Assembly (NCBI GenBank): GCA_017937095.1
Contig: JAGBEG010000004.1
Coordinates: 186,001-250,000 of the forward strand
From: Roseburia sp.
GTDB taxonomy: Bacteria > Bacillota > Clostridia > Lachnospirales > Lachnospiraceae
Direction: 5' to 3'
Length of the DNA stretch: 64,000 nt
Shown: one piece after another, positions 6,710 to 64,000 of the stretch
How positions within the stretch are numbered: the first letter of the stretch is position 1
Layout of the letters: the number at the start of each line of letters is the position of its first letter
Program-made: the position numbers and the translations under genes
The notes under the pieces: model-generated
Database searches by the model: none
What the model was told of the DNA's origin: nothing
Seen by the model: the letters and a program-made list of their open reading frames with translations, nothing else

Positions 6710-6743
6710 GACACACCACCCTTTCTGCAAATACGCGTTTTTA

Positions 6744-7364: not shown

Positions 7365-7435
7365 TTCTTATCCCTCCGCCTTTTCCTGAAATCTTACAGA
7401 CTTCCGGCAACCTTACGTTTTTTGTAATTTCATCT

Positions 7436-7636
7436 TCATGCTTTCATATTCATCATCCTCAGCTTCGCCGTCAATTCCTTATCATAAACTGCAACCATCA
7501 TGCTGCGCTGTCCGCCGCCCGCGCTTGGTGCATAATTTCCCGCTTCCAGTATTTTCTCCAAATCCTCACGCGCAATCTGTTCCTCTGTATATTTCCGAAT
7601 AGAATGACGCGCCTTAATAATTTCCATTAATTGCAT
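7436..7636 (-). pseudogene. Truncated nitroreductase-family gene
   Basis: Sixty-six residues match only the N-terminal part of nitroreductases (MEIIKARHSIRKYTEEQIAREDLEKILEAGNYAPSAGG, the FMN-binding start) and stop after 'RMMNMKA'. The family normally has 170-200 residues and works as an FMN dimer. The 71 bases to the next start hold no continuation. It overlaps the 3' end of the radical SAM gene by 10 bases and has its own GGGAGA site, so it was once translationally coupled to it. A retained function for such a short piece is unlikely. Confidence 0.75.
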
Positions 7637-35230: not shown

Positions 35231-36835
35231 ATGGGAATTGAAATATATCCACAAACACTAAAAAGCTGTCTTTCGACTGTCAATCTTGAATTACAACAAA
35301 TATTGGAAGCGACTACTCTGTATAAAAATAGTATTGAGGCATTTATTGGAGAAGAAAATCTGACCAGTATTGCCTACGGCAGCGAAAAAGATTACATGCG
35401 CTGGGGGCATCTGCCCGCTATACAAGCACAGGTTTCTGCCATCCGCGCTTACGCAGATGCAAATCAAAAACATATTTTCTTGATTGATGCTTATCTATCG
35501 GGCGAATATTATTTAAACGAAGATATCTTGCAGGAGCAACTCCTGCGTGTCCAACAGATGCTGCAATGGGCGCTGCTCTTACAGGCGCAGGGTGTATATG
35601 AGATCTTAGACCGCCTGCGATTGGAGCTGCAACGCAAATTAGACAATCTATACGAATTTGCGTACGCATCTGCTGGGATTTATACAGCAATGCGAACAAA
35701 CCTTGACCTTATGGTAAGCCTTAGTGCTGTAGTGACAAATACAGTCTACAAATCCGATACAAATACCTATTTACGTCCAACAAGCTCTGGGAAAGAGAAG
35801 AAAAATACACCGGCAACGATGACGAAACAAGAGTTTTCTAATATCATGACGGAACAATTCGGCTTCGACAAGCGCACTGGAGAGATTATGTATGATGTCT
35901 ATATGGCAATACAGAAAGAGTATGAGGATAAAACGCAGCAGGAGCGGGATTGGTATTTTGCAAGAGCGTTGAGTCAATTGGGGGATTATAATTCGAAAAA
36001 AGCAAATATTGGTCCCGTGAAAATAGAAACGAACGCATGGAGAAAAGGTGCAGGATGGGTATATAAATATGACGAAGAGGAGTCCTACTTCTGTAATACA
36101 TTGGGTCTAAGTGAGAATGATTACACGTATCTCCGCTATATGCTCCGACTGCAACACTTTATAACAAGTAAGCCTGAAGATTATAGTTATGGTGCTCTCC
36201 TCTACTTATGGGCATACGATCCATCCGATTTTGCAAGTTGGAAAAAAAATATGGAGACTGCAACAGGAACCGAATTAAGTGATATAGCATATGTAAAAAA
36301 GTATAAATTGTTATATGATCAACTTAAAGACAACGGCGACTGCTCCCATATGTTCTACACTATCTCCGCAAATTTAATTGACAATGGTCACAAAGTTGAC
36401 AACAGCTGGAAAAATATTGGCGCACCAGATTTATCCTGGTCCAATGCCGATGTACGCAAAGATATTACCGGATGGCTCGGGGATGCTGTCTATCTGGGTG
36501 ACGAAAACCAAACGTCCTTTGGAACCGATGACTACATCGCCGATTTGGATGCGGATAACCTTGCTCACCGTTGTTTGACAGACAACGACCTCTTAAGTAG
36601 TATGCAGGACTATTATACCAATATATCGAATGGAAATGCGGATGAAGTGCGCACAAGGGAATTTTTAAAAAACAATTCCTTTGAAGATGTTGAGAAAACA
36701 ATTTTTGATATTATATCATGCAATGATGCCAACAAGGACGGTTTCGTCAACACTATTGATTTAAAAGAAAATAGCGTCTACTCTGACACTTATGACTTTC
36801 TCATGAAACTGAAAAAATACCAAGATAATAAATAA
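35231..36835 (+). CDS. LXG-domain type VII secreted toxin, TelC-like
   Basis: A 534-residue protein. The N-terminal 200 residues are helical and LXG-like (AYGSEKDYMRWGHLPAIQAQVSAIRAYADANQKHIFLIDAYLSG). The C-terminal part has an aspartate-rich region at about residues 411-445 (DITGWLGDA ... DDYIADLDADN), consistent with the TelC lipid II phosphatase family, which is of similar length (about 550 residues). The TelC call rests on this and on the TipC-like neighbour, not on a search. Such toxins act outside the cell on peptidoglycan precursor. No type VII core gene is in the window. Confidence 0.6.
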   Translation: MGIEIYPQTLKSCLSTVNLELQQILEATTLYKNSIEAFIGEENLTSIAYGSEKDYMRWGHLPAIQAQVSAIRAYADANQKHIFLIDAYLSGEYYLNEDILQEQLLRVQQMLQWALLLQAQGVYEILDRLRLELQRKLDNLYEFAYASAGIYTAMRTNLDLMVSLSAVVTNTVYKSDTNTYLRPTSSGKEKKNTPATMTKQEFSNIMTEQFGFDKRTGEIMYDVYMAIQKEYEDKTQQERDWYFARALSQLGDYNSKKANIGPVKIETNAWRKGAGWVYKYDEEESYFCNTLGLSENDYTYLRYMLRLQHFITSKPEDYSYGALLYLWAYDPSDFASWKKNMETATGTELSDIAYVKKYKLLYDQLKDNGDCSHMFYTISANLIDNGHKVDNSWKNIGAPDLSWSNADVRKDITGWLGDAVYLGDENQTSFGTDDYIADLDADNLAHRCLTDNDLLSSMQDYYTNISNGNADEVRTREFLKNNSFEDVEKTIFDIISCNDANKDGFVNTIDLKENSVYSDTYDFLMKLKKYQDNK

Positions 36836-36845
36836 GGGAGTAACT

Positions 36846-37481
36846 ATGAAAAAAAGAAAACATATTCTATTATCTGCTATTTTACTTATCATACTTTTCT
36901 TAGCAATTGCATGTATAATTTATATAAAAGGGAGAACTACAATGGATAAAATTTTCTTTGCAGCAGCGACCTATAACTTCAAAACTTTTAATCAAGTACC
37001 GGAACTTGATCCTGTTTCTAATGAAGACACTGCACAATTTGAAAACTTTGGCGGAATGAGTATTCGGTATAAGGAAGAATACCTTTCAAACGGAATTACT
37101 GCAAAACTGTTTATTCCTGCTGAAGAAAAACAGAAAAACATTCAAATTCATGCTACAATGGATATTTCTAATACCACAATTATTATTATGGACATAACTT
37201 ACAACGATACACAACACACCCTCACTTATGAACCGATTTCTGTTTCTTACTCCCACAAAGACACCTTATTGGTCGAGCATTATTTTGATAGTGAAAGCAT
37301 CATGCGCTTTCTGTGGGAAAACGACGTTACCAAACAGGATATTTCTGATTTCCAAGACTACATCCTCTATGACGTTGTTGTCAAAACATGGACAGACGCT
37401 CATAACGAAGATTTTGAAAAAGAACGGGAAAAGGTAGAATGCATGACAAAAATCGACAATACTTTCTCTTTTCCCGAATAA
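36846..37481 (+). CDS. Membrane-anchored immunity protein, TipC-like
   Basis: A 211-residue protein with one N-terminal helix (ILLSAILLIILFLAIACIIYI) and an outside domain. The C-terminal stretch (LWENDVTKQDISDFQDYILYDVVVKTWTDAHNE) resembles the end of TipC-family immunity proteins. TipC neutralises TelC outside the membrane. It starts 10 bases after the toxin stop with a GGGAG site. Confidence 0.65.
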   Translation: MKKRKHILLSAILLIILFLAIACIIYIKGRTTMDKIFFAAATYNFKTFNQVPELDPVSNEDTAQFENFGGMSIRYKEEYLSNGITAKLFIPAEEKQKNIQIHATMDISNTTIIIMDITYNDTQHTLTYEPISVSYSHKDTLLVEHYFDSESIMRFLWENDVTKQDISDFQDYILYDVVVKTWTDAHNEDFEKEREKVECMTKIDNTFSFPE

Positions 37482-37484
37482 CTC

Positions 37485-38150
37485 CTAAAACGCAAACATC
37501 AGAAACAACACCAGCCACGTTTTCTTAATGTCTCTTCCAACCACAAGATACGCCACGCCAAACAGGAAACCATAGACAAGCCCGTTCAATCCCGTTACAA
37601 GGCTTCCCTTGGTAAAAATGTGCGCCAGACCCCAGGTCAGCCCGCAGATGATTCCGCCATACGGGATGTCTCGCTTTTTAAACACTGTCTCGCAAAGCCT
37701 CTGTCCGAACACGACAATCAGCATAAAAAGCACCGTCTCAAACGCATAATAAACATACTGGAACACAAACACCGGAAGCGTCTTATTTTGAAACTCTTTT
37801 AAAACCTTAAAACCACCCCAGTCAAGATAGTTGATCCCAATCGCAACGACAACACAGCAGACGGCTACAATCCACTGCCAGAGCTTCATCGGCTCGCCCT
37901 TTTCCATAAGAGAAAACCCGCAGCTTTTTTTCGCGTCATGTCCAACCCAGAGCGCCACCAGCCCCCACGTTACACAGGTGATCGTCCAATGCAGAATGTT
38001 CTGTGCCGTTGTCCATTCCTGCATCGGCGCGCCATAAATCATCGGCTCAATCAAAAACGCCCACAAAACCTCTAAGCCAAGACCGCCGAACGCTGTCATT
38101 GCCAGCCAGAAATAATTCCATCCCAGTTTCTTTGTCGTATTCATTTCCAT
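37485..38150 (-). CDS. Polytopic membrane protein, CPBP-like
   Basis: A 221-residue protein with six or seven hydrophobic helices. GGIICGLTWGLAHIF resembles the G-x-x-W-x-x-x-H motif of CPBP (CAAX/bacteriocin-processing) intramembrane proteases, but the EExxxR motif is not obvious (FETVLF instead), so protease activity is doubtful. It converges on the TipC-like gene. Confidence 0.55.
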   Translation of the reverse strand: MEMNTTKKLGWNYFWLAMTAFGGLGLEVLWAFLIEPMIYGAPMQEWTTAQNILHWTITCVTWGLVALWVGHDAKKSCGFSLMEKGEPMKLWQWIVAVCCVVVAIGINYLDWGGFKVLKEFQNKTLPVFVFQYVYYAFETVLFMLIVVFGQRLCETVFKKRDIPYGGIICGLTWGLAHIFTKGSLVTGLNGLVYGFLFGVAYLVVGRDIKKTWLVLFLMFAF

Positions 38151-38256
38151 AACTTACCTCCTGATTCGTTGTCCATTACCCGCTCCACTGCGGCGCGGAC
38201 TCTCCGTTGCTCTGTTTCTGTTTTTTGTTTCTGTTACTTTGCAGCTCCCGTTTCTG

Positions 38257-38688
38257 TTACTTTGCAGCTCCTGCTTCCCTGACCTCCTGCAACAGGCGGT
38301 TCGCCTTCTTTATCTCAAAATAAAGCGAAATGTAGTACACTGCCGCCGCAATCACATACGGCACTGTAAATGACCAGAACATATCACGGTATGCATCCTC
38401 ATGCAGCTCCACAAAAAAACCTGAAATCCATATCACAAGCATGACTGCTGCAATCAGCACCACATACTGTCCCGCCATTACTGCAATCAACGGAAAGCGC
38501 TCCAGCCGGTAATGCTGTGAAAGTACGAATGTTCCCAGCGCGGAAAATCCAAACATCAGCAGCAGATTTTCCTGATCGTTGCCAAATATCCCCCCGAAAA
38601 CCGCTTCTACGACAATTTTACCAAGTACCAGACAGGTAAAAACCACGCATATTGTCGATAAAAAATTGCTTTTATCTATCAGCTTCAT
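38257..38688 (-). CDS. DUF3021-like membrane protein
   Basis: A 143-residue protein with four membrane helices (LSTICVVFTCLVLGKIVVEAVFGG; ... VVLIAAVMLVIWISGFFV; IAAAVYYISLYFEIK). The ATG overlaps the stop of the LytTR gene. LytTR plus DUF3021 pairs are frequent in Firmicutes, and the membrane partner probably controls the DNA-binding one. Confidence 0.7.
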   Translation of the reverse strand: MKLIDKSNFLSTICVVFTCLVLGKIVVEAVFGGIFGNDQENLLLMFGFSALGTFVLSQHYRLERFPLIAVMAGQYVVLIAAVMLVIWISGFFVELHEDAYRDMFWSFTVPYVIAAAVYYISLYFEIKKANRLLQEVREAGAAK

Positions 38689-52569: not shown

Positions 52570-52941
52570 TTATGTTGCACACAACAGTGTAAGACACCCT
52601 TTGGCAAATTCCGCGCTCCCTCTTAAGATAAAACGTCCCACTTTCGTTTTGTTATCATAATAATATGAAAACAAATCATTTTCCGCGCTATTGCCATTCA
52701 CATATTCAAGGATCGTCTCGCACAATTTCATTAGCTCTTCCTCCGTTCCCGGAGAATCGTAAACCAGACACGCAGACGGGCTCCTTTTTCTTTCTTCCCT
52801 GCAAAAATCTCCGACAATCGCCTGTGACTTAATCTTTACGCCTTGCATTACATAGTCGGAAGCAAAAAAATCCTGTATATCTTCTTTCGAAAAATACCAC
52901 TTTCCCTTTTTGTGAGCTGGCACCAAAAATGTCAATTCCAC
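52570..52941 (-). CDS. Hypothetical protein, possibly a DNA-binding accessory protein
   Basis: A 123-residue soluble protein: PAHKKGKWYFSKEDIQDFFASDYVMQGVKIKSQAIVGDFCRE at the start looks like the C-terminal half of an excisionase-like HTH protein whose N-terminal helices are missing. The rest is an alpha/beta segment with no recognised motif. It is the last host-like gene before the AT-rich edge of the prophage module. Confidence 0.45.
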   Translation of the reverse strand: MELTFLVPAHKKGKWYFSKEDIQDFFASDYVMQGVKIKSQAIVGDFCREERKRSPSACLVYDSPGTEEELMKLCETILEYVNGNSAENDLFSYYYDNKTKVGRFILRGSAEFAKGCLTLLCAT

Positions 52942-53070
52942 TCACTTAAAATGTCAAAAAACTTTGTATCTTCAAATTTAAAATAAAAATCGATCTTTTT
53001 CTTTGATTATTTTATCACATAAAATAGACGTAAAACATATTTTTAATGTAATTTAAAAATATATAAAATA

Positions 53071-53457
53071 ATGTTTTCCCAATTCATTTCGTCAAACGAT
53101 GCTTTAGCGACATTAGGGAAAATGTATACACAAACGTCAACTTTAACCGATGTTACAGCCGGAAAAGGCTATAATAACCAAGCAAGCGTATCTGTTCCCG
53201 AAGGTAAATATATTATTATACGCGAAGTTTATCGCAGCGGCAGTTTTAACGATTCGACAATCACGTTGAGAGTTGGAACATCAACAAATGCCGGGGGGAA
53301 TGTAAAATCAGCGACCATGAATAATAGTATATTACAACACATTTCATACCTATGCCTTGATGCTCCTACGGATATTAGCACCTGTGTCGTTATTGATGCC
53401 GTTTCGACGACAGGGCAAACCGTGATTGTCAGAACAACGGCAATAAAAATCGGGTAA
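53071..53457 (+). CDS. Silent alternative C-terminus of the phage tail fibre
   Basis: A frame on the opposite strand from all other phage genes, with no ribosome-binding site. It runs MFSQFISSNDALATLGKMYTQTSTLTDVTAG... for 128 residues, with beta-rich knob-like sequence. Its NDALA codons are the same 16 bases, in the same phase, as NDALA in the tail-fibre gene facing it, where the two form an inverted repeat (53094-53109 and 53741-53756). Inversion would join it in frame to the tail-fibre stem. It is thus likely a cassette that is expressed only after inversion. Confidence 0.75.
   Translation: MFSQFISSNDALATLGKMYTQTSTLTDVTAGKGYNNQASVSVPEGKYIIIREVYRSGSFNDSTITLRVGTSTNAGGNVKSATMNNSILQHISYLCLDAPTDISTCVVIDAVSTTGQTVIVRTTAIKIG
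53094..53109 (+). other. Left arm of a 16-bp inverted repeat (putative inversion site)
   Basis: AAACGATGCTTTAGCG, the exact reverse complement of 53741-53756. It codes NDALA in the plus-strand cassette. Confidence 0.75.
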
Positions 53458-53464
53458 TAAACGC

Positions 53465-55270
53465 TTATGTAAATACATCCTTCTTGACGCATAAAACTGT
53501 TGCAGTCATTGTTAAATTATCAATGGCAGAATCAGTTATATTGTATACATCTGCCCGAATATAGACGCTCGTGATCTGAAGCCCCATATTAGTAAGCTTG
53601 TTTGACGATAATCTATAACTCAACACACCAATGGGGGTATAGCCTGATGGAAGCGTGTAAGGTGATATTACAGCCGTCCCAGCATGGGCAGGTAATGATT
53701 TAGGCGCATCAGCAGTACCCATGACTACTTTCAGACAAGACGCTAAAGCATCGTTTTGCGCAGCAATTTCCCGCCCCAGTTCATCAGTGTCGTTTGCTAA
53801 CCATGCAATTGCCTGCGTCACAGTTCCGCCGTGATCTGATATATCCGTATTGCCGAGCATCTTATACAGATACCGGACGTTTTTAAACATCGTAGACACC
53901 TTTTTTAAAATCGACTTATGCTTTTCTCCGCTTTTCAGCACATCCACATCCGTCCATACATTTGCCTCTGCCGCATCCGCGCTCTCGAAGGTGACTGTAT
54001 TCTCCGCAGAATCCCCGCCCTCCGGCAGCGCACCGATATTTTCCGGTGTCAGATCAACAAGCCCCTGTCGGTATGTAGCTTCCTTTGCTCCCTTGACGCC
54101 GCCGACCGCCGTACCCGCCATACAATCCCACTTGCCGTCTGCTGTCAGATATACGTTCGTTCCGGCAGAATAAGCATGTCCTGCGCCCTCGTTAAAAGTA
54201 TCATCTGTCGTAAAATCATCCGAGATATTATACATATACCCCGCCTGCGCTGTGACGGTGGCAAGCTGCGCATAGGTAATCGTTCCCATCGGCATAAGCG
54301 CGCCCTGCAACCCCTGTGCAATACGCTTCGCCTGCTCATAATAATACATAGAATTATCCGTAGCATCATTCTCACGAATAGCCCCTTCGGTCCCAACAGC
54401 ATAACTTTTCGAGAGGTCTGCATAATTTCCCGCCTGTTTTGAGCTTGCATTTGCTTCATCTGCCATAGCACCCGCCAGTTCCGCTGATTCTCCTGCGTTT
54501 GCGGCATCTTGCGCCGCCTGCTCTGCTTTCGCGGTGGCAGTCTGCGCCGCCGCCGTAGCTTTGGCGGCAGATTCTCCCGCGTTCGTCTCGCTGACTTTTG
54601 ATGCCGCCGCTGATTCTCCGGCATTCGTTTCGCTTGTTTTAGCTGCGTCCGCAGACGCTCCAGATTCCAACGCAGATTGTTCTGCCGCCGCTGCCGAATC
54701 CGCCGCCCGTGTAGCGAATTTTTCTGCATTGGCTTCATTTTCTGCCGCCGCCATCTGACTCGCCTGCGCTTTTGCTGTCTCTACTTTTATGTCTGCAAGA
54801 TAGTTTGGCTGTAAATGCTTCTCCTCAATGCTGCCCTCTTTGACAATTGCAGATACTTTCCCAGCGGCATCCACTGAAAAAGCAATTGTATCTGTATCTA
54901 AAAATTCATACTGTGTAATTAGCGCTGACATGTCTATGTACTTGGTTGTCCCATCATCAAGGGTAATAATAAGTTGCTGTGTCTGCGGATCATAGCCAAA
55001 ATTGACTGCCAGTTTTTCCAGCATAGTATCAATGGTCGCCGTTGCACCATTATAATAGGAAATGGTAAAGATACCTGTAGCACGGTCAAGTACAATACTT
55101 TCGATCAGCTTTGCCGCCTCGGTCTTATCAAACTTCATTGTGTCCAAGCCAATGATCCGATTGTCCATTTCATCCATAGCAACATCTATCTTCTTCAAAT
55201 TCGATTTGCCCAGTGGTGTTGTGTCATTTGGGCGATTCTCCCAGTTAATCTGGTTATATGCTTTATTCAT
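53465..55270 (-). CDS. Phage tail fibre with exchangeable C-terminus
   Basis: A 601-residue fibre. The start at 55270 overlaps the stop of the previous gene and has GGAGGG before it. N-terminal attachment (NKAYNQINWENRPNDTTPLGKSNLKKIDVAMDEMD), an Ala-rich coiled-coil stem (about residues 175-290, many A-A-x-x-A heptads and ETNAGESAA repeats), then a receptor-binding C-domain. At NDALA the gene meets a putative inversion site; the last 97 residues are the segment that would be swapped. Confidence 0.85.
   Translation of the reverse strand: MNKAYNQINWENRPNDTTPLGKSNLKKIDVAMDEMDNRIIGLDTMKFDKTEAAKLIESIVLDRATGIFTISYYNGATATIDTMLEKLAVNFGYDPQTQQLIITLDDGTTKYIDMSALITQYEFLDTDTIAFSVDAAGKVSAIVKEGSIEEKHLQPNYLADIKVETAKAQASQMAAAENEANAEKFATRAADSAAAAEQSALESGASADAAKTSETNAGESAAASKVSETNAGESAAKATAAAQTATAKAEQAAQDAANAGESAELAGAMADEANASSKQAGNYADLSKSYAVGTEGAIRENDATDNSMYYYEQAKRIAQGLQGALMPMGTITYAQLATVTAQAGYMYNISDDFTTDDTFNEGAGHAYSAGTNVYLTADGKWDCMAGTAVGGVKGAKEATYRQGLVDLTPENIGALPEGGDSAENTVTFESADAAEANVWTDVDVLKSGEKHKSILKKVSTMFKNVRYLYKMLGNTDISDHGGTVTQAIAWLANDTDELGREIAAQNDALASCLKVVMGTADAPKSLPAHAGTAVISPYTLPSGYTPIGVLSYRLSSNKLTNMGLQITSVYIRADVYNITDSAIDNLTMTATVLCVKKDVFT
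53741..53756 (-). other. Right arm of a 16-bp inverted repeat (putative inversion site)
   Basis: On the minus strand AAACGATGCTTTAGCG, codes NDALA in the tail-fibre gene, in the same codon phase as the left arm. The 631 bases between hold the two converging C-terminal ends. Confidence 0.75.
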
Positions 55271-57353
55271 TCTTTTTTCCCTCCAATACTTTGATTCTAT
55301 CATTTTGTGATTGCACAGTAGCGATTAAATCCGCTATCAGTTCCAAATAATCGAGTGTGAGATATGTCGCCCCTCCTGCGCCGGTATTCTCCCCGCACAC
55401 CGCCCAATCCTCCACACCGATTGCCTCCTGTACCTTCTGTGCAATCAGCCCGTGTCTGTAATGCCCATCCACATCATAGTTGTATTTGAACCGGCAAGGC
55501 TCCTGCGCATAGATAAATTGTGCTCGCTCATATATGTCAAGCGGTTCTATGTCATGTTTAAGACGGGCATCCGAATAGGATTCCCAACCATATGAGGATA
55601 TTCCCATACCATCATCCCGTAAAAAGGCTACTAAATCCCCGCAAGAGACTCCAATCTGGTTATATTGGACAATCGCGCTCCGCCCGCCGCCGTTTGCATA
55701 CATACCGTCATTCCCAATGCCGATTTCCGTCTCACCACGGGTAAAATGTATAAGATTGGGATTTCCCTCCGTATCGCCTGCGTCGATGTGCATATACCCG
55801 CCTGTCATCTCTACTTTTCCAACAAGTTCCAGCCGCTCCGAAGCTATCTTGACTGTCTCTGCCGACTGATTGATTTCCGATATAACATTATTCTTTTCTA
55901 CCTTATGCGTTATCTGCTCCGCATTTTGTTCGATACTGCTTGACATAGATTTGTATTGCGATTGCGCATTATCCTTGGTCTCGTAGTTTTCGGAAACCTC
56001 TGACTTGATACTGTTTGCCGTTTGCGAGATACTGGACTGTAATTTCTTCTCTACCTCAGATGTCTCATCTTTTGTTGTATAACTGTTCGCCGCATCGGTT
56101 CGTATTTCTTCGGCGGTCTGGGTGATGGTCGATGTAAGATTTTTCTCCACATCTTTAATTTCCAGTTTGGTTTCCTCTACCGTGCGCTCCAACACATTGG
56201 TCTTGCCTTTGAGTTGGATAATCGACCGATTCACAGCGTTTACTTTCTCCGAATACTCCTTCACTCCCTCCGCAGAATAAGCGTCTCTTAATGCCTGTAT
56301 GCCTTTCAGGGTTCTCTTTAATATGTAAGATTCCACAATCTCATACTTGGTCGTAAGCCGTACTGCATCCCCGACCTCAAAGCAGGGATTTCCTTTGACA
56401 TCCGCTTCAAACGGACGATAAGCAATCTCTGTGATGACACTGAATAAATTATTGGCAATCCGTTCAAGATCAGCAGCCAATTTCCCATACACCAAGAAGT
56501 TATCCTCGACGATATAGCAGTTGCTCCCAGTTCCCACAATCGAGCCGATATCGTTCTCCTCCTGCCGAATCTGCAGCTTGTCAATTTTGTGTGTCACAAA
56601 ATCCTCATATTGGCAGTTAATGTATATACTCTTACCGATTCGGGTGGACTGCGGGTCTGCCGGGTAAAGATCTTCTGCCGGATAAAGATCTTCCGCCGGG
56701 TAAAGCCCTTCTATATACTTTTCTAAAAATACATAGCGGAATTTCCCATCCCGCCCGATATGACCGAAGCAGCCGTTAATCTCGCAAATAGCTGTGATAA
56801 CATCCTTGCCGCTGATCTGTGACGGCTCGATCGTTTTTTCAACGACCATATCGTCATTTACAAGGTCGATTTCTTCCTGCTCGAGCCCGAAGTTATCAAT
56901 GAAGCTTGTCCGAAACTGCTTAAGCGTGACGGTACTGGTCTTATCCGGCAGAATTGCGTTGTACCAATCCGCCACATCTGCTTTGATAATGTCATACATG
57001 GCATCATAGGCAATGATATCCCGGTATCTCCGATCAGCGGTGGGCTTGTCAGAAAAGACCTTGTATCTGCCAAACTGAAAAGAGACATCGGTGTTTTGAT
57101 CCAATGTCTCCGTGACGGTCAACCATTTATCTTTAAGTGGGATAAACACATTTGAAATTTTAAATTTTATAGAACTCGCTTCACAACATCCGAATCGCAG
57201 TTCAGATTTTGAACACAAACTCTCCGTTAGTTGAAATTGCTCTGAATGCAGCTCCGTGTTTGTAATTGTCACCAACTTGTCTTCCGTCTGTATCACGAGT
57301 TGTATGTCGACACTATCCTGTGTATAAAGGTCAGCATATTTGTATTCGATCAT
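55263..57353 (-). CDS. Phage tail tip/spike with peptidase S74 chaperone domain
   Basis: A 696-residue protein. The N-terminal half is a tail-tip baseplate-like part (ITNTELHSEQFQLTESLCS...), the centre is coiled coil (many TEE/KIK heptads), and the C-terminal 100 residues are an intramolecular chaperone autoprotease with the S74 motif SDARLKHDI and HRHGLIAQKVQEAIG. The fold is cut off after trimerisation. A small in-frame repeat YPAEDLYPAEDLYPAD (about 18 bp per unit) is in the N-terminal half. Confidence 0.85.
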   Translation of the reverse strand: MIEYKYADLYTQDSVDIQLVIQTEDKLVTITNTELHSEQFQLTESLCSKSELRFGCCEASSIKFKISNVFIPLKDKWLTVTETLDQNTDVSFQFGRYKVFSDKPTADRRYRDIIAYDAMYDIIKADVADWYNAILPDKTSTVTLKQFRTSFIDNFGLEQEEIDLVNDDMVVEKTIEPSQISGKDVITAICEINGCFGHIGRDGKFRYVFLEKYIEGLYPAEDLYPAEDLYPADPQSTRIGKSIYINCQYEDFVTHKIDKLQIRQEENDIGSIVGTGSNCYIVEDNFLVYGKLAADLERIANNLFSVITEIAYRPFEADVKGNPCFEVGDAVRLTTKYEIVESYILKRTLKGIQALRDAYSAEGVKEYSEKVNAVNRSIIQLKGKTNVLERTVEETKLEIKDVEKNLTSTITQTAEEIRTDAANSYTTKDETSEVEKKLQSSISQTANSIKSEVSENYETKDNAQSQYKSMSSSIEQNAEQITHKVEKNNVISEINQSAETVKIASERLELVGKVEMTGGYMHIDAGDTEGNPNLIHFTRGETEIGIGNDGMYANGGGRSAIVQYNQIGVSCGDLVAFLRDDGMGISSYGWESYSDARLKHDIEPLDIYERAQFIYAQEPCRFKYNYDVDGHYRHGLIAQKVQEAIGVEDWAVCGENTGAGGATYLTLDYLELIADLIATVQSQNDRIKVLEGKKNE

Positions 57354-57365
57354 CGTTTCTCCTAA

Positions 57366-57773
57366 CTAATATCCTATAAAAGCAAACCGTATTGCATTGT
57401 AATATATCCTTCCATCTTTTGTTCCATATATGGATGTTTTGGGGTCTGGCATATACATTTCTTGCGTAATGTATTCATTCAGTTCCGGCACATAAACCGT
57501 TGCCAGCACTTTTCTTTCGGAATAATTAATATAATTTCTGCTAATATTCCACATCAACTCCCCGAAGGTGATATCTGTCAGCATCGGTGGTGTCTCAAAT
57601 TCTACTTTAACAGGCGCGTGCTCCAACGCCGTCCGATGTAATACACCGTTAGCGTCGCGATAACTGTCTAAGTCCTGCACATTACGTGTTACATTGTAGC
57701 TCTTCAAAAATATGTACTTATCATCGGGGATTATATAATCCCCGACTTTTATCAAAAATCCGCTATATGCCAT
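57366..57773 (-). CDS. DUF6711-like phage tail protein
   Basis: A 135-residue protein MAYSGFLIKVGDYIIPDDKYIFLKSYNVTRNVQDLDSYRDANGVLHR, followed by ...PPMLTDITFGELMWNISRNYIN. It lies between tape-measure and tail-tip genes as is usual for this small siphophage tail family. The precise role is unknown. Confidence 0.7.
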   Translation of the reverse strand: MAYSGFLIKVGDYIIPDDKYIFLKSYNVTRNVQDLDSYRDANGVLHRTALEHAPVKVEFETPPMLTDITFGELMWNISRNYINYSERKVLATVYVPELNEYITQEMYMPDPKTSIYGTKDGRIYYNAIRFAFIGY

Positions 57774-57795
57774 TACATCACCTCTACCTCAAACC

Positions 57796-60700
57796 TCAAT
57801 GCACAAATGCCTCCTCTCCGGTACGTCCGTAATACTCATCACATTCCTCTTTTACTACATTAAATATTGATGTTGAGTCAATCCCGGAATCCTTTGCCAG
57901 AATCTGTCTAAGCAACTGATTTTGTTCGCGAAGAAGCTGATTTTGCTCCGAGTTTGCATCTCTCACGCCTGCTGCAATACCCTCCACAATCTGTCCATTG
58001 TTTGCTACCGCAGTCTTACCATTCGAAAATTTTCCAACCATTTCCTCATGATTCGCCAGAAATAAACCATCCTCTGGGAATCCACCATTTGCAAACATCG
58101 GTAAATTACCAAGTTTAACAGTAGTGTTTTTCCCGCTGATCGGATTCGTGATATTAAATGTAAGTTTCTGATTGAGCCACGTTGCAAATCCATTCCAGAT
58201 ATTTTGGGCTGCAGACACTGCATTATTAAACGCAGCGCTTAGTCCTTCCCGAATACCGCTAAAATTCCATTTACTACTTGTGAAATATGGGACAACATGA
58301 CTATTCCACCACGCATAAATTCCAGTCGTTTTCCACCATCCGGTAAATTCGTTCCACTTTGTTGTAATTCCCTCTTTCATACCTTTCGCAACGCTTAACC
58401 ATTTCTCACGTGTGAACCACGGCGCTACATGGGTATTCCACCATTCCGGCACTCCGGCGCTTCCCCACCATGCGGAAAATTCATCCCACTTACCCGATAA
58501 GGATGTCTTGATATTATCGCCGAGACCACTCCACTTTTCTGCCGTGAACCATGGCGCAACATCATTTGTATACCAATCGCTTATCTTTTGGGAAATTTGC
58601 ATCAGATCAGCCTCATCCAGAATGCTGCTTCCAAGTTCGAAACTTCCGCTGCCGCCGCCATGCTTCCGCTGCCTAGAAGATAGTATACTGTCAATTTCCT
58701 GCTCAATCGGATCGAATATATTCTGCAGCCACTTTCCAATCGATCCGCCGTCAGTTGCCGATGTAATCTCTTCTCCAATGAACTCGATCGGATGTGAGAA
58801 AAATTTGAAAAACTTCGTATCCTTAATTCCACAGTTTTCAAATGCCCTGTCAAATTTTTCTTTATCAAGCCCTAATATATTTACCAGAATACTGCTTCCC
58901 AGTTCGTAGCCCAGTCCGAAGAGTGCATCCTCAATCGCTTTCACAATTTCCCAAGCCAGCCCCGCAAAATCAATTACAATACCGCCCCAGTCAATAGACG
59001 ACAGGAACTCACCAATCTTTTTCCCGACGTCTTCCCACCTGATTTTTTCAACGGCGGTAGTGATGAACTTAAGCAGCCCTCTCGCCCATGTACTCACCGC
59101 TTTACCTGATGCCTTAAAGTCATACGTCTCGAAAAATCTGTTCATGCCTGCTGCCACTGATGATCCAAAATTCTTCCAGTCAAAGGTTGTAGCAAAAGCT
59201 AATGACGCATATACAGTCGTATTTAACGCCCCTGCAATCGTTTTCCCTAATTCGCCAAACAACTCTGGTGTAATAAGTCCATTCAGAAACGTTGCTAAAC
59301 CAGTGCCGAACTTGCTTGCCCCTGCATAGATGCTTTCCCAATCTATACTTTCCAGTTGCTCCGTCAACTTTTTGCTGATGATTCTGCCTAAGTCATAAAA
59401 ATCAGCATTTTCCCAACATTCCTTGAGTTTTTCCGCCCACTTTGCATATTTTGATTCTACCTCTTCCGTCGTGAACATATCCCCTGTTCCGCTACCCGAT
59501 CCTGAACCCGATCCTGATCCGGAACTTGTGTTGGAACTGAGATTATTCAGCTCATCGAATCCGGCAAGCTGCCCTTTAAGGTTCTTGGCGGACGCTGCCG
59601 ACTTATCCAGACTTGCAGCATAGTCTTTTTGCACCTTGACAGCTTTTGTCCATGTGCTCTGTCCTGTCAGTGCCGCGATAAGCTGTGCGATTGCATTCGC
59701 CGCGCCGATAACATAATTGATAAGTCTGTCTAAGATCGGCGTTACAATCTGCAAAACTGGAGCAAAAGCAGTCGCAAACGCGTTTTTAAGTGTCTGTAAA
59801 CTGCTGTATAAAGTAGAAAGCGACTGATTGACCTCAGTGCTCTCCTTTGCCAGATTCTGCATCCCTTCCTTGACTGCACTGATCGATCCTTGAATCAGAA
59901 AGCTTGCAAACATGAATTTTGCGCTGAGCGCTACAGCGTTAAAAATACCACCCAGCTTTTTGCTCTCACCGCCCATCCCATTCATGGCGCTTTTTACCCG
60001 GTTTATTGTCTGGATTCCACTCTTAAGGCGCTGCAGAAAGGATGTAACCCGCGAGGTGGCATTTTTAACACTGCCAGATGTCTCACGGATTTTACGGTTC
60101 ATCTGGCTTATTTTCGCACTGGTTCCCGGCGGGCTTGTACTATTGAGCATAGCATCCAGTTTTTCTTTCGTCGTGCCAGCTTCATTCTTCATTCGTTCCA
60201 TCTTGCGCGTCTCTGCCTCAATCCGCGCCTCCAATTCCCGCGCTGATGTAGACAGTTCCGGATTCATCCTTACTTCTGCAAGCCTCGCTTTTAATGCCTC
60301 GACCTTGCGCCCTAATGCTTCGTACTTCGGATCGAGCGCATCCAACTGATTCGATAATTTCTGCAGCGTGCCGGAACTTCCGCCATTTTTCGCCGCCATT
60401 TCTGCAATTTCGTACTGGTCAAGCAGCGATTCCATTTTTCGTCTGACAACATCAAATTCTTTCTCCGCAGATTTTAGCTGTCTTTCCAGACCAGACACGC
60501 TCTGATCACGGCTCATACCACCAATAAGGTCGTCATATTTACTTTTCAACCCATTGATAACATCCTGCTGCTGTACAATTCGCTCCTTTTGCCTTTCTAG
60601 CTGACTATTAAGACTTTCCATTTCCTTTCTAGCCTTGTCAGTCCGAACTCCGCCCATTGCCTGATTTATCTTTGCTGTTTCGCTGTTGATTGCATCTCGC

Positions 60701-60810
60701 GCCTTCTTTGTCTCTGCTTTCACGGTGTCCATATCCTTCTTGTAGCCACTAAGCGCGACTCGGATTGCAACCTTAAGCTCTGTCAAAGTCTTACTTTCCG
60801 TTTGTTGCAC
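57796..60810 (-). CDS. Phage tail tape measure protein
   Basis: A 1004-residue protein with a long helical N-terminal half (coiled coil; KAETKKARDAINSETAKINQAMGGV), a hydrophobic centre (LFMFASFLIQGSISAVKEGM-like) and C-terminal Trp-rich repeats (WYTNDVAPWFTAEKWSGL / WWNTHVAPWFTREKWLSV / WWNSHVVPYFTSSKW), and a Gly/Ser-rich stretch at ~440. Length sets the tail length of siphophages. It overlaps the preceding gene by 20 bases. Confidence 0.95.
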   Translation of the reverse strand: MQQTESKTLTELKVAIRVALSGYKKDMDTVKAETKKARDAINSETAKINQAMGGVRTDKARKEMESLNSQLERQKERIVQQQDVINGLKSKYDDLIGGMSRDQSVSGLERQLKSAEKEFDVVRRKMESLLDQYEIAEMAAKNGGSSGTLQKLSNQLDALDPKYEALGRKVEALKARLAEVRMNPELSTSARELEARIEAETRKMERMKNEAGTTKEKLDAMLNSTSPPGTSAKISQMNRKIRETSGSVKNATSRVTSFLQRLKSGIQTINRVKSAMNGMGGESKKLGGIFNAVALSAKFMFASFLIQGSISAVKEGMQNLAKESTEVNQSLSTLYSSLQTLKNAFATAFAPVLQIVTPILDRLINYVIGAANAIAQLIAALTGQSTWTKAVKVQKDYAASLDKSAASAKNLKGQLAGFDELNNLSSNTSSGSGSGSGSGSGTGDMFTTEEVESKYAKWAEKLKECWENADFYDLGRIISKKLTEQLESIDWESIYAGASKFGTGLATFLNGLITPELFGELGKTIAGALNTTVYASLAFATTFDWKNFGSSVAAGMNRFFETYDFKASGKAVSTWARGLLKFITTAVEKIRWEDVGKKIGEFLSSIDWGGIVIDFAGLAWEIVKAIEDALFGLGYELGSSILVNILGLDKEKFDRAFENCGIKDTKFFKFFSHPIEFIGEEITSATDGGSIGKWLQNIFDPIEQEIDSILSSRQRKHGGGSGSFELGSSILDEADLMQISQKISDWYTNDVAPWFTAEKWSGLGDNIKTSLSGKWDEFSAWWGSAGVPEWWNTHVAPWFTREKWLSVAKGMKEGITTKWNEFTGWWKTTGIYAWWNSHVVPYFTSSKWNFSGIREGLSAAFNNAVSAAQNIWNGFATWLNQKLTFNITNPISGKNTTVKLGNLPMFANGGFPEDGLFLANHEEMVGKFSNGKTAVANNGQIVEGIAAGVRDANSEQNQLLREQNQLLRQILAKDSGIDSTSIFNVVKEECDEYYGRTGEEAFVH

Positions 60811-61216
60811 CTCCCCTCTGTCTGTTTACGCGATACGCATGATGTATGCGCTGCGCCTTATAAAGCTGCATCTCGGCGGACAACTCAGTTTTTTGTTTCT
60901 TATCAATGCTGTTGTTGTCTTGTATATCTGCAGTAAATAATTCCGGCAGAAGCCGCACCATGGAAGCCTCGGAAATATCCTCTCCATTCACCGCCATCGC
61001 CATTTTTTTTATCAGATTGCTGCCAAACACATCTAAAATTGATATCCACTGTTGCAGGATCTCCTTTTCACGCTGCTGCTTACGTCGTGCGTAACTCTCG
61101 ATCAGGTCGATTGCCTCATTGACCGATACACTGTAAAAGAGTTTGGGTGTATACTCACAATCCAAAAATCTTTTGTACAGTTCCTGCATTAGTGCCGCCT
61201 GCTGCTCATATGTCAC
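60791..61216 (-). CDS. Phage tail assembly chaperone-like protein (second)
   Basis: A 141-residue helical protein in the place of the second tail chaperone gene, directly before tape measure. The ATG overlaps the first chaperone's stop. Acidic/basic helices (ESYARRKQQREKEILQQWISILDVFG). Identification is by position and size. Confidence 0.7.
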   Translation of the reverse strand: MTYEQQAALMQELYKRFLDCEYTPKLFYSVSVNEAIDLIESYARRKQQREKEILQQWISILDVFGSNLIKKMAMAVNGEDISEASMVRLLPELFTADIQDNNSIDKKQKTELSAEMQLYKAQRIHHAYRVNRQRGGATNGK

Positions 61217-61686
61217 ATATCTTCCTGAATTTTCTTCATCGTGTCGGACATTTCCTCCGCCACTGTCGGAGAGAAAAAACCAGATACCATGTAAATCTGG
61301 AGATAGACATCAACATACAAATTCATCTGTGTGCCGCCCGCCTCCATGTACTTCTCATACAAATCCATGACATTTTTAAGCCTGATACCATGATTCCACG
61401 GCACTGCTGCTGCATGGATGATCTGTAGCATCGTCGTAAGCGGCGGGATATTGTTCTCGTCACCCATGAGTGTTATCAGGTTCTTCCGGAATTTCTTTTC
61501 CAGTTCCAAGGTCTGCGGCGTAGTGAGTTTCAATTTCACTTCTTCATCACCGATTTTCCAAAAAGCAAATGCAGGACGCATCTGCTTTTTTTCCTCTATG
61601 TTCACGATGTTGGTCGTGCTCTCCTCTACTCCGGCTGCCATCTCCGCATCGTTCTCATAAGCTTCATTGTTCAAAAAATTTTCCAT
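61213..61686 (-). CDS. Phage tail assembly chaperone-like protein (first)
   Basis: A 157-residue protein in front of the second chaperone gene. EEKKQMRPAFAFWKIGDEEVKLKLTTPQTLELEKKFRKNLITLM is typical of these tail chaperones in Firmicutes siphophages. Many phages make a frameshift fusion here, but here an ATGA overlap serves instead. Confidence 0.75.
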   Translation of the reverse strand: MENFLNNEAYENDAEMAAGVEESTTNIVNIEEKKQMRPAFAFWKIGDEEVKLKLTTPQTLELEKKFRKNLITLMGDENNIPPLTTMLQIIHAAAVPWNHGIRLKNVMDLYEKYMEAGGTQMNLYVDVYLQIYMVSGFFSPTVAEEMSDTMKKIQEDM

Positions 61687-61745
61687 GACGTTTTCCTCCT
61701 ATAACGCTAATGCCATACCGTTTCCGGTATGGCATAGTCAAATTA

Positions 61746-62159
61746 TTATGTTGGGTCTGTTACAATAATATCGCTCTGCAGCGCCATCTTCACGGACAGA
61801 TCAATGACCGTATTCGTACCTCCCCCGCGCTTAAAACCAATTGACGGAATTGCTGCGTAGCTGAATTTCGTCCCGTCCGTCCACATCTCCTCAAATTCAA
61901 GAATCGTATTACTGTCCGCATACTCCCGGAGCATCCGGTAAGTGGTGTTCTCCTTGTTGCCCTCATACACAAACGTATATTCCATGTCTCCATAATCGCC
62001 GACTCCATATTCATACCGCTTATTTCCGGCGGTAATCGGGGTGTTCTCGACCTTTTCCTTTTCATTATCTATGTCCGGCACAGTCTTTAAGTTCGGTAAA
62101 TCCGTATAGTCTTCTGTTCCGGGGACCCGGTAGCCTAATAAAGTACCATTTGCTAACAT
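61746..62159 (-). CDS. Phage tail tube protein
   Basis: A 137-residue beta-rich protein: MLANGTLLGYRVPGTEDYTDLPNLKTVPDIDNEKEKVENTPITAGNKRYEYGVGDYGDMEYTFVYEG. The length and the LANGTLL... opening fit the short major tail proteins of clostridial siphophages. Next to terminator and chaperone genes. Confidence 0.85.
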   Translation of the reverse strand: MLANGTLLGYRVPGTEDYTDLPNLKTVPDIDNEKEKVENTPITAGNKRYEYGVGDYGDMEYTFVYEGNKENTTYRMLREYADSNTILEFEEMWTDGTKFSYAAIPSIGFKRGGGTNTVIDLSVKMALQSDIIVTDPT

Positions 62160-62171
62160 TGTTCATCCTCC

Positions 62172-62537
62172 TTACGGCGGCGATACGATACGCCCATCAT
62201 TTTCATAGACGATGCCCTCGTACCGCATGATTTTGTGTTTCCGCTGCGTCTCATTGTTGTCTGCGCAGCTTGTTCTCTTCAAGCCGAGTTCTGCATTCAT
62301 CTTTTCATCCACAGCACAGGCAAGTGCTGACGTGCTTTTTTTATTCCAGATATCAATACGGTAGCGTACGTAAGAATTGCACACCCGATTCCCGGACATC
62401 TCATGTGCTTTGTTCTCTTCCTCCGTATACTGTATCTGTGTCTCGGCGGTAAAATCATCTGGGAAGCTGTCCGATACATTTTCACATCCTGCAATTTCCT
62501 CCAGCAGCTCCAATATCCTACTTTTCAGATTTATCAT
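62172..62537 (-). CDS. Phage tail terminator-like protein
   Basis: A 121-residue protein preceding the tail tube gene (MINLKSRILELLEEIAGCENVSDSFPDDFTAETQIQYTEEENKAH...). This is the place of tail terminator (DUF3168-like) proteins. Identified by position and size. The ATG overlaps the previous stop by four bases. Confidence 0.65.
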   Translation of the reverse strand: MINLKSRILELLEEIAGCENVSDSFPDDFTAETQIQYTEEENKAHEMSGNRVCNSYVRYRIDIWNKKSTSALACAVDEKMNAELGLKRTSCADNNETQRKHKIMRYEGIVYENDGRIVSPP

Positions 62538-63019
62538 CCGCTTCTCCTTTCAAGGATTTTCTCAATTTCCTTTGACAGCTTTGCCTTAATCTGATCCTCG
62601 TTATCCTTTAACGCCGGATAAAGATATGGCTGTGCGGGCTGCCCGGCGATATACCGGATGCCCGCGTCTGTCTCACTGACAAGCCCGGGGATTCTTCCTC
62701 GCCATTTTTCCGTTGTATAAGTCACATCCACCTCCGGTGATACCCCTGCATGATTTGCCGCCCCGACCGGACCCGTGCCAAACTCGACGTATACCGCATG
62801 ATCGGAGTTGGTGTGTACTGTTGATACAATCTCCGCGTCGGCTGCTTTTTCTGTCGTGTGGTCGATAGACTTGCGCAAATCTCCGGTATCGACCGGAACA
62901 CGCAGTCGTGCATCATCCCGGACAAATTCGCCGCATGCATCAACAGCTTGCATCACCTCATCCTCTATATCAGCCAAATCACCCAGCTTTGCAAGATAAT
63001 CTTCCATCCCTTCAATCAT
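62534..63019 (-). CDS. HK97 gp10-family phage protein
   Basis: A 161-residue protein: MEDYLAKLGDLADIEDEVMQAVDACGEFVRDDARLRVPVDTGDLRKSIDHTTEKAADAEIVSTVHTNSDHAVYVEFGTGP. The PVDTG-LRKSI and YVEFGTGP blocks are diagnostic. It connects head and tail. Confidence 0.9.
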   Translation of the reverse strand: MIEGMEDYLAKLGDLADIEDEVMQAVDACGEFVRDDARLRVPVDTGDLRKSIDHTTEKAADAEIVSTVHTNSDHAVYVEFGTGPVGAANHAGVSPEVDVTYTTEKWRGRIPGLVSETDAGIRYIAGQPAQPYLYPALKDNEDQIKAKLSKEIEKILERRSG

Positions 63020-63390
63020 CGCATTTTCTCCAGTATGATACGCAAATGGGAAAACGGGTGTATCGCGATAATCCGATAATCCGGCGGCTGTTCAGGGGTA
63101 GCATAGATGCAGACGCCGTCACCGACCGCCATACTATATTCCTTTTCACCGAACCAGTACGTCTCCACTCCGTTTTCCACTGTCACAGTATAGGGTTCGT
63201 CATACAGCAGTTTCTTCTGCCACTGCTGCACATTTCCCATCTGTACATTCTGCATCTGACCGCTGCCCGAACACACAGTCGCACTTATCTTGACCGCCAC
63301 ATCCGTAAATACCGCGTATTTTTCTCCATCCTCGCCCTTCACGACAACTTTCTTTTTCAGCCAGCATTCTCGCTTGTTCTTAAGCTTCAT
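63016..63390 (-). CDS. Phage head-closure/connector-like protein
   Basis: A 124-residue beta-rich protein between a head-tail connector and a gp10-type protein. MKLKNKRECWLKKKVVVKGEDGEKYAVFTDVAVKI. No definite family, position points to the head-closure slot. Confidence 0.6.
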   Translation of the reverse strand: MKLKNKRECWLKKKVVVKGEDGEKYAVFTDVAVKISATVCSGSGQMQNVQMGNVQQWQKKLLYDEPYTVTVENGVETYWFGEKEYSMAVGDGVCIYATPEQPPDYRIIAIHPFSHLRIILEKMR

Positions 63391-63694
63391 TCGCGACTAC
63401 CGCCTGTTTCAGCTTCCGGTGCGCAAGCACACGCTTCATGAGATCGTCCGGGATATCTTTTGTATAGGCATTATGCACGCTGACATCTCCTTCTGTCCGG
63501 CTCTCTTCCCCCTCCGCCATCATACGTCTTGCATATACCTCGGCAAGTGATAACTGAAGATTACGCATGTTAGCGGGTATAGATGTCCTGTTTGTAACAT
63601 CCATAATCATTCCCGCTGCGTCGTTAAGCGCCTGCTGCAGCATATCACTGTCGGCATCCTTCATTCTTAAGGTCAATTCCTCGATCAGTTCCAT
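63380..63694 (-). CDS. Phage head-tail connector protein (gp6-like)
   Basis: A 104-residue helical protein: MELIEELTLRMKDADSDMLQQALNDAAGMIMDVTNRTSIPANMRNLQLSLAEVYARRMMAEGEESRTEGDVSV. The helical layout and place after the capsid-side genes fit the gp6/gp15 connector family. Confidence 0.75.
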   Translation of the reverse strand: MELIEELTLRMKDADSDMLQQALNDAAGMIMDVTNRTSIPANMRNLQLSLAEVYARRMMAEGEESRTEGDVSVHNAYTKDIPDDLMKRVLAHRKLKQAVVANEA

Positions 63695-63704
63695 GCTGCA
63701 CCTC

Positions 63705-64000
63705 CTATTCGCCTAAATCAGTTTCCTGCGCCGGATCAGCTCCCTGTGCCGGGTCTGCCTGCTGCCGTGCCGGATCAGTTCCCTGCGCCGGGTCCGCCTG
63801 CTGCTGCGCCGAATCAGCTCCCTGTGCCGGGTCTGCCTGCTGCTGCGCCGGATCAGTTCCCTGTGCCGGGTCTGCCTGCTGCTGCGCCGGATCAGTTCCC
63901 TGTGCCGGGTCTGCCTGCTGCTGCGTCGGATCAGTTTCCTGTGCCGAAGTTACCTGCTGATCCAACGTCTCCGTCAGTTCCAGCAATTCCTTCTTCCCCG
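63705..64000 (-). CDS. Partial phage-region protein with DPAQQQ repeats (5' end outside window)
   Basis: The frame is open to the right edge. After a short helical GKKELLELTETLDQQVTSAQET come repeated 12-residue units of the DPAQQQADPAQGT type, about six copies. The sequence is acidic, Gln/Ala/Pro-rich and likely disordered. Position just before the head-tail connector would suit a capsid-associated protein or a small HeH/LEM-type phage protein, but no identification is possible. Confidence 0.5.
   Translation of the reverse strand, partial: GKKELLELTETLDQQVTSAQETDPTQQQADPAQGTDPAQQQADPAQGTDPAQQQADPAQGADSAQQQADPAQGTDPARQQADPAQGADPAQETDLGE
63720..63955 (-). repeat. 36-bp tandem repeat encoding DPAQQQADPAQG units
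   Basis: About six nearly perfect units, all multiples of three bases (TGCTGCTGCGCCGGATCAG on the plus strand). Variation is limited to a few codons (TD/AD, QQ/RQ). Confidence 0.75.

What the first reader, a model, noticed from the sequence alone, without database searches (positions are those of the whole stretch)
53071..55270. Invertible C-terminal cassette of a phage tail fibre
A 16-bp exact inverted repeat at 53094-53109 and 53741-53756 reads NDALA in the same frame in both orientations. On the right the minus-strand fibre gene runs through it to a stop at 53465. On the left an RBS-less plus-strand frame runs through it to a stop at 53457. Flipping the 631 bases between would put the alternative 116-residue end (TLGKMYTQ...) on the same stem without any frameshift. 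This is the layout of Mu-type and similar host-range switches. No recombinase is seen in the window.
Basis: partly seen in the sequence, partly recalled or inferred. Interest (0 to 1): 0.85.

Follow-up and report, generated by a model that had tools for sequence, protein, structure and literature searches.

The report
Flippable phage tail-fibre tip, no recombinase
A Mu-like virus lodged in a bacterium's genome carries two alternative ends for its tail fibre, arranged so that flipping a short piece of DNA could swap them, yet no flipping enzyme was found in it; related phages use the same layout, two of them with an enzyme right beside it.

Summary
In detail: an exact 16-bp inverted repeat (53094-53109 / 53741-53756), same codon phase on both sides, two convergent open ends with stops 7 bp apart. 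It lies 183 bp inside the right end of a complete 30,140-bp Mu-like transposable prophage (MuA, MuB, Gam, GemA, Mor; 5-bp target duplication), a place like that of Mu's G segment (recalled). No serine or tyrosine recombinase was found in the prophage. The same stem-site-tip|tip-site layout recurs in 14 other cassettes at 13 loci sharing this fibre stem; under fixed limits 9 of 31 stem anchors show it against 69 of 6762 control anchors. Two of those loci (L152, L155) carry a Xer-like tyrosine recombinase right beside the cassette. The host genome has a close relative of those enzymes, next to an hsdS-like gene on another contig. Two pairs of homologous tips in relatives give dN/dS 0.10 and 0.21. 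I conclude: a tyrosine-type invertible fibre-tip cassette without an enzyme of its own, flipped in trans or now locked. Flipping is not shown: one orientation of one genome was available. Closest known: the Rin shufflon of bifidobacterial prophages and an orphan inversion described with it.

The parts
52906..52910 (.). CTTTT, one copy of the 5-bp target-site duplication (other copy at L006:19051-19055 = contig position 269051-269055)
52911..64000 (-). right-hand part of a 30,140-bp Mu-like transposable prophage; right terminus TGTGA at 52911, left terminus outside the window at L006:19050 (contig 269050)
   Evidence: ends, length; MuA, MuB, Gam, GemA, Mor
53094..53109 (+). distal crossover-site copy AAACGATGCTTTAGCG
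53741..53756 (-). proximal crossover-site copy inside the fibre gene, just past the conserved stem end
53095..53457 (+). silent alternative fibre tip, 120 aa from NDALA to TAA, no start signal of its own seen
53465..53755 (-). active fibre tip, 96 aa from NDALA to TAA
53465..55270 (-). tail-fibre gene (601 aa from the ATG with GGAGGG upstream); constant stem 53757-55270
53789..54016 (-). conserved stem end (MFKNVRYLYKMLG...) shared with other phage fibres; ends 32 nt before the proximal site
55263..57353 (-). upstream tail protein with C-terminal endosialidase-chaperone domain (Peptidase_S74)
52570..52905 (-). distal part of the host gene interrupted by the prophage (HTH-like by eye; rest from L006:19051 onward)

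Best explanation
This is a two-state invertible tail-fibre tip cassette of the tyrosine-recombinase type. The fibre gene's constant stem ends in a short crossover site; beyond it lie two alternative tips, convergent and tail to tail, with an inverted copy of the site at the far end. Recombination between the two sites would flip the 631 bp between them and put the other tip on the stem in frame. No recombinase was found in the prophage, so the enzyme would have to come in trans (a host or co-resident tyrosine recombinase; the one beside hsdS on contig C7 is the nearest own relative of the cassette-linked enzymes), or the cassette is now locked. Shown: anatomy, phase, absence of serine and tyrosine recombinases from the complete prophage, the same architecture in other phages, adjacent recombinases in two of them, purifying selection on two pairs of homologous tips. 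Inferred: that inversion happens here, that the tips bind receptors, and which enzyme acts.
For: Anatomy and phase. Alternative tip looks coding. Same layout in 14 other cassettes at 13 loci, L132 and L143 being weak, plus one more in L181. Stem anchors 9 of 31 positive (own included) against 69 of 6762 control anchors. L152: one active and three silent tips marked by four sites, the last site overlapping the end of a tyrosine-recombinase frame (sites 5224, 5771, 6041, 6373-6384; frame 6381-7475); L155: recombinase frame opens at 3557, distal site ends at 3553. Tip pairs: dN/dS 0.21 (L178/L179, both silent) and 0.10 (two copies in L180). Homology ends at the site in L083/L109 (5782), L139/L163 (5233/5209) and L126/L129 (1733). 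Two genomes of the same genus carry AAACGAAACTTTAGCG, 14 of 16 identical to the own site, near the stem/tip junction: G023 in a cassette, G027 as a single copy. Host recombinase C7:154723-155814: E 1.4e-60 to the L152 enzyme and in one group (100/99) with seven phage recombinases in a 17-row tree. Own stem-side site GCAAAA-CGATGC-TTTAGC resembles a tyrosine-recombinase core, two half-sites around an asymmetric spacer (my reading).
Against: No opposite orientation has been seen; no second copy or near relative of this prophage was found, but the collections hold one genome per species and the tools may leave out records very near the window's genome. Neither tip has a detectable relative (alternative tip; active tip: only, viral and phage collections). 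22 of 31 stem anchors lack the cassette under the limits, so the stem does not require it; five loci counted as cassettes are among those 22 rows (L132, L143, L146, L152, L173). The TAAAC core also occurs in stems without a cassette. No close copy of the own site lies near the hsdS-linked recombinase. A model of the alternative tip was useless (pLDDT 40).
Confidence: 0.72

Rival explanations
1. Frozen cassette: an ancestor flipped its tips with a linked recombinase, which has been lost; the repeat and second tip are a recent fossil and the phage is locked in the present state. (Overlaps the second branch of the best explanation.)
For: No serine or tyrosine recombinase in the complete prophage; relatives exist with a linked enzyme and with a single tip and no such enzyme nearby (L151).
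Against: Both arms are still identical over 16 bp and the silent tip is still open over 120 codons. Cassettes with no recombinase match in the fetched stretch also occur elsewhere (L178-L181, L132, L139, L143, L146, L163, L164), as expected if supply in trans is common, though these are fragments.
Confidence: 0.3
2. The repeat is a by-product of ordinary module exchange at the stem/tip boundary: a second tip was picked up in reverse with a stretch of stem, and no inversion ever took place.
For: Homology breaks near this boundary also between phages without a detected cassette (for example L140/L157); the codons there are conserved in non-cassette stems.
Against: Recurrent layout with spacers that differ between phages but are identical between the two arms of one phage; linked recombinases in L152 and L155; enrichment over control anchors.
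Confidence: 0.08
3. A serine (Gin/Cin/Hin-type) invertase supplied in trans flips the segment, as in Mu.
For: Position next to the right end of a Mu-like phage, as the Mu G segment (layout of Mu recalled, not from a call).
Against: The only PF00239 match in the genome lies in a 520-aa frame, not a small invertase; recombinases beside such cassettes in relatives are tyrosine recombinases.
Confidence: 0.04
4. The plus-strand frame 53071-53457 is an independent small gene and the inverted repeat is a coincidence.
For: It has an ATG.
Against: No ribosome-binding site seen and a 23% G+C leader; NDALA in phase in both frames; the same arrangement in relatives.
Confidence: 0.03

Closest known systems
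Rin shufflon of Bifidobacterium prophages (PMC6109161; passages and section 8 read) and its likeness in Eggerthella lenta prophages (PMC8778435; passages read)
   Same: Short asymmetric repeat inside the receptor-binding-protein gene and inverted copies beyond it; constant N-terminus, C-termini of about 95-100 residues; in L152 and L155 a tyrosine recombinase is adjacent.
   Different: No recombinase found in the prophage here; two tips only; the phage is transposable and Mu-like; the site sequence differs from the published 11-bp and 8-bp repeats.
Orphan ~500-bp inversion of bifidophages Bb423phi2/689b-1 (PMC6109161 section 8)
   Same: 3' end of a gene and a small gene exchanged at a short repeat with no recombinase flanking the locus; the authors suggest an invertase in trans.
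   Different: There the inversion was seen between two phages but the genes had no identifiable function; here inversion was not seen but the gene is a tail fibre.
Mu G segment / Gin and P1 C segment / Cin (details recalled; systems named in PMC6109161 section 8)
   Same: Invertible 3' ends of a tail-fibre gene, in Mu near the right end of a transposable phage.
   Different: Serine invertase and 26-bp sites there; no serine invertase here.
Haloviruses phiCh1, phiH1, ChaoS9: invertible tail-fibre module with Int1 (PMC6471424; passages read)
   Same: Tyrosine recombinase flips tail-fibre gene ends.
   Different: The recombinase lies between the fibre genes; archaeal viruses.
Roseburia phage Jekyll, LR596902
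   Same: Same fibre stem (52.8% identity over residues 8-502 of the query).
   Different: Single long tip, no qualifying inverted cassette; annotated with an integrase.
Bacillus phage BalMu-1
   Same: Closest named relative by Mu-like transposase (41%).
   Different: Annotated with a tail sheath and, near its right end, with Avd and a reverse transcriptase instead of an inversion cassette.

Membership tests
Mu-like transposable phage | MuA transposase (rve plus Mu-transpos_C), MuB ATPase, Gam, GemA, Mor | tested here: met
   Mu-transpos_C 1.6e-14, rve 6.4e-11, phrog_296 4.1e-69 for the MuB-like protein, Phage_Mu_Gam 5.9e-33, GemA 3.7e-16, Mor 5.4e-15
Mu-like transposable phage | TG...CA ends with a 5-bp target duplication in host DNA | tested here: met
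   TGTGA at both ends, CTTTT on both sides, one open host frame of 154 codons when the flanks are joined; other chance end pairs were less alike
Gin/Cin/Min serine inversion systems | linked serine invertase | tested here: not met
   one PF00239 match in the genome, frame 520 aa, on contig C7
Gin/Cin/Min serine inversion systems | 26-bp dyad site with 2-bp core, and an enhancer | not tested
   only the 16-bp identity was measured; an enhancer needs experiment
Rin-type tyrosine tip shufflon | in-frame short inverted repeat at the constant/variable boundary, with alternative ends of about 100 aa | tested here: met
   16 bp; ends of 96 and 120 aa
Rin-type tyrosine tip shufflon | linked tyrosine recombinase | tested here: not met
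   none in the prophage; linkage is met in relatives L152 and L155
Rin-type tyrosine tip shufflon | inversion observed | not testable with these tools
   no reads and no second strain of this prophage

The most novel reading that the evidence does not exclude
A transposable phage that has dispensed with an invertase and borrows the host's own hsdS-linked tyrosine recombinase, so that one host enzyme switches both the cell's restriction specificity and the resident prophage's fibre tip. This would couple what the cell resists to what its phage binds.
Probability: 0.15. Interest if true: 0.85.

Novelty: new variant of a known kind. Interest (0 to 1): 0.6.

Why it matters
It points to a family of fibre-tip inversion cassettes in phages that share one stem module and occur in bacterial genomes (some titled Lachnospiraceae) and in viral contigs, some with a linked Xer-like recombinase and some with none in reach. 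The orphan form makes the question whether phages borrow host invertases directly testable, since the prophage is complete and the candidate host enzymes are few. It also puts recombinases linked to fibre tips and one next to an hsdS-like gene into one enzyme group.

Tried and rejected
Serine-type reading of the site (a palindrome around TT with 7 of 11 matches in each copy, counted by eye): dropped when relatives turned out to carry tyrosine recombinases. TAAAC core as a cassette-specific mark: rejected, it is common in stems without a cassette. The 16-mer in viral contigs: 22 stretches with one match each, none paired within the stretch. Mu-like relatives by transposase (G041, G098, MT835475, BalMu-1; 36-42% in the transposase): their matches lie in the early, head and lysis genes, none in the tail end. 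Relatives of the full fibre by peptide patterns: none in viral contigs or genome contigs; tips: none. Structure of the alternative tip: pLDDT 40, not used. Near-identical loci in opposite orientation: none seen among 35 loci compared (read by eye, matches over 80 nt). Inverted repeats beside host recombinases (7 loci) and beside hsdS: nothing like the phage site. L160 and L158 have repeats flanking the recombinase gene itself: not resolved. One search also flagged L045, L056/L141, L109 and L158 (11-12 bp repeats); I took these for chance and did not carry them into. Invertases of other kinds (for example DEDD/Piv type) were looked for only through the Pfam scans of 33 prophage proteins.

Full report
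1. Observation. The window carries an exact 16-bp inverted repeat, AAACGATGCTTTAGCG, at 53094-53109 and, inverted, at 53741-53756, with 631 nt between the arms. These are the only two exact copies in the 3.89-Mb genome. None of 60 second-order Markov versions of the window holds such a repeat with arms 200-1000 nt apart. Both arms begin at codon position 3 and read N-D-A-L-A in their frames; the stops of the two convergent frames are 7 bp apart. The fibre gene's likely start is ATG 55270 behind GGAGGG; the plus frame at 53071 shows no ribosome-binding site and has a 23% G+C leader. The 345 nt of the alternative end stay open in 3 of 5000 shuffles, and its frame is the best of six by codon usage of the neighbouring late genes, a modest signal (2.3% of shuffles score as high).

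2. Surroundings. The element is a complete Mu-like prophage. Its transposase has Mu-transpos_C, rve and DDE_2 domains, followed by a MuB-like ATPase, Gam, GemA and Mor. Its ends are TGTGA at window 52911 and at L006:19050, with CTTTT on both sides; joining the flanks gives one open host frame of 154 codons. The prophage is therefore 30,140 bp, and the distal site lies 183 bp from its right end. Serine and tyrosine recombinases are absent: the genome-wide PF00239 and PF00589 matches (1 and 13 rows) all lie elsewhere, a tyrosine-recombinase profile hits none of 369 prophage frames of 40 codons or more, even at E 10, and Pfam scans of 33 prophage proteins show no recombinase but MuA.

3. Relatives. 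The whole fibre matches 13 of 62 genus genomes, own included, and one phage record, Jekyll; peptide-pattern scans gave none. The end of the stem is shared more widely. A profile of nine stem ends found matches in 5 of 397 family genomes and 8 of 62 genus genomes, own included in both, and in 35 viral loci out of 59 pattern matches. Scanning for an inverted repeat near the stem end with an in-frame convergent open end and reading the sites and tips gave, besides the window, 14 cassettes at 13 loci: L083 (two), L126, L127, L129, L132, L139, L143, L146, L152, L155, L163, L164, L173. L132 (12 bp) and L143 (different site, tips alike) are weak; L126 and L129 come from one genome, L163 and L164 from records with one genome number; L144 is identical to L139. 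Repeats of 11-12 bp flagged at L045, L056/L141, L109 and L158 were set aside as chance. L181, the larger stretch around L173, holds a second cassette.

4. Control. With fixed limits (at least 13 bp, arm within 60 nt of the stem end, at least 60 open codons), 9 of 31 stem anchors with 600 nt or more downstream were positive (L083 twice, window, L127, L129, L139, L155, L163, L164) against 69 of 6762 random anchors in long frames of the same loci. Of 46 rows, 15 had too little downstream sequence, L126 among them; 26 duplicate loci had been dropped by hand. Five loci counted as cassettes fail these limits (L132, L143, L146, L152, L173). Some loci give more than one row, and control anchors may touch cassettes, so the contrast is rough.

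5. Enzyme. In L152 the active tip and three silent tips are marked by four copies of TAAATGACTCTT; the last copy (6373-6384) overlaps the end of a tyrosine-recombinase frame (6381-7475). phmmer with that protein finds L155:3557-4591, just past L155's distal site (ends 3553), then L148/L149, L160, L145 and L158 on contigs with this type of fibre, and the host protein at C7:154723-155814 (E 1.4e-60); the next own protein scores 8e-26. In a 17-row tree the host protein groups with seven phage recombinases (100/99), apart from eight other own recombinases and the L083 integrase; one row in the group (from G361) is on a long branch, and three weak own matches (C9, C16, C19) were not put in. NCBIfam scores the host protein, L155 and L148 above the cut-off of NF040815 and L152 below it. 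The host gene lies downstream of an hsdS-like gene (Methylase_S, 4.8e-34) and a DUF3990 gene. No close copy of the own site was found there. Stretches around cassettes in G431, G112 and G023 (L178-L181) and L132, L139, L143, L146, L163, L164 hold no tyrosine-recombinase match; the L083 record has one, an integrase-type protein 651 bp past its second cassette, and no serine recombinase. That integrase could be the flipping enzyme there; it is outside the L152 group.

6. Are silent tips used? Two pairs of homologous tips could be compared: L178/L179 silent tips, 70 of 103 residues identical, dN/dS 0.21; two tip copies in L180, 86 of 109, dN/dS 0.10. Silent DNA under purifying selection is expected if it is expressed from time to time. 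The window's own silent tip has no known relative, so the test cannot be made on it.

7. Site. Own copies read GCAAAA-CGATGC-TTTAGC (stem side) and GTCAAA-CGATGC-TTTAGC (distal). Two genomes of the same genus carry AAACGAAACTTTAGCG, 14 of 16 identical, near the same protein position: G023 in a cassette (inverted partner AAACGAAACTTTCAC) and G027 as a single copy in the 14 kb read. Half-sites around an asymmetric spacer fit a tyrosine recombinase; this is inference. The TAAAC core also occurs in stems without cassettes, so it is not a mark of inversion. Homology between relatives ends at the site in three pairs with at least one cassette (L083/L109, L139/L163, L126/L129), but tip exchange without inversion would also give this, and L112/L131 stay alike past it to the contig end.

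8. Conclusion. A tyrosine-type invertible fibre-tip cassette without an enzyme of its own, in a Mu-like phage: 0.72 that it is such a cassette, flipped in trans or now locked; 0.3 that it is at present locked (the two overlap). It works like Rin; it is not a full Rin member because the linked recombinase was tested for and is absent. It is not a Gin system. The nearest published orphan inversion is in bifidophages (PMC6109161 section 8), where supply in trans was proposed. One search also listed a paper on the serine recombinase PinQ and cryptic prophage DNA (PMC12529663, listing only).

9. Literature. Ten searches of open-licence PMC papers brought up no description of such cassettes in Lachnospiraceae phages; subscription papers and preprints were not covered. 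PMC8042965 was seen in passages and did not bear on this.

Noticed in passing
L152:5224-7475: Four-site fibre-tip shufflon (one active tip, three silent) with an adjacent Xer-like tyrosine recombinase; its relative L151 (87% over 4.7 kb) has one tip and only an integrase in the stretch held.
   Followed up: partly
L181:8910-10876 (G023:C144): Two fibre genes in tandem, each with its own inverted cassette (TAAACAAAGCTTTCACGA, 18 bp; TCGCTAAACGAAACTTT, 17 bp).
   Followed up: partly
L180:10186-10823: A further pair of convergent tip-like frames, one a diverged copy of the silent tip at 7913-8243, so this phage may hold four tips.
   Followed up: partly
L160:6044-7335: A 55-bp perfect inverted repeat flanks the recombinase gene itself, so the enzyme gene may lie in an invertible segment.
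   Followed up: no
L083:8963-10812: An integrase-type tyrosine recombinase lies 651 bp past the second fibre cassette.
   Followed up: no
L175:12692-15814 (C7): hsdS-like gene, DUF3990 gene, short unknown gene and tyrosine recombinase in a row; no hsdM or hsdR recognised by eye in the ORF list.
   Followed up: partly
L006:16555-17178: 207-aa protein near the MuA gene with weak similarity to the Mu transposase C-terminal domain (8.2e-4, below cut-off).
   Followed up: no
L006:7240-7578: 112-aa protein with weak similarity to TnsD (2.1e-6, below cut-off) and to helix-turn-helix domains.
   Followed up: no
L080 (NC_030945) 36659-38386: BalMu-1, the closest named relative by transposase, is annotated with Avd and a reverse transcriptase near its right end, another tail-diversifying device in a similar place.
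   Followed up: no
window 63705-63986: Minus-strand frame made of repeats of the kind QQADPAQGTDPAQ, next to the prophage head genes.
   Followed up: no
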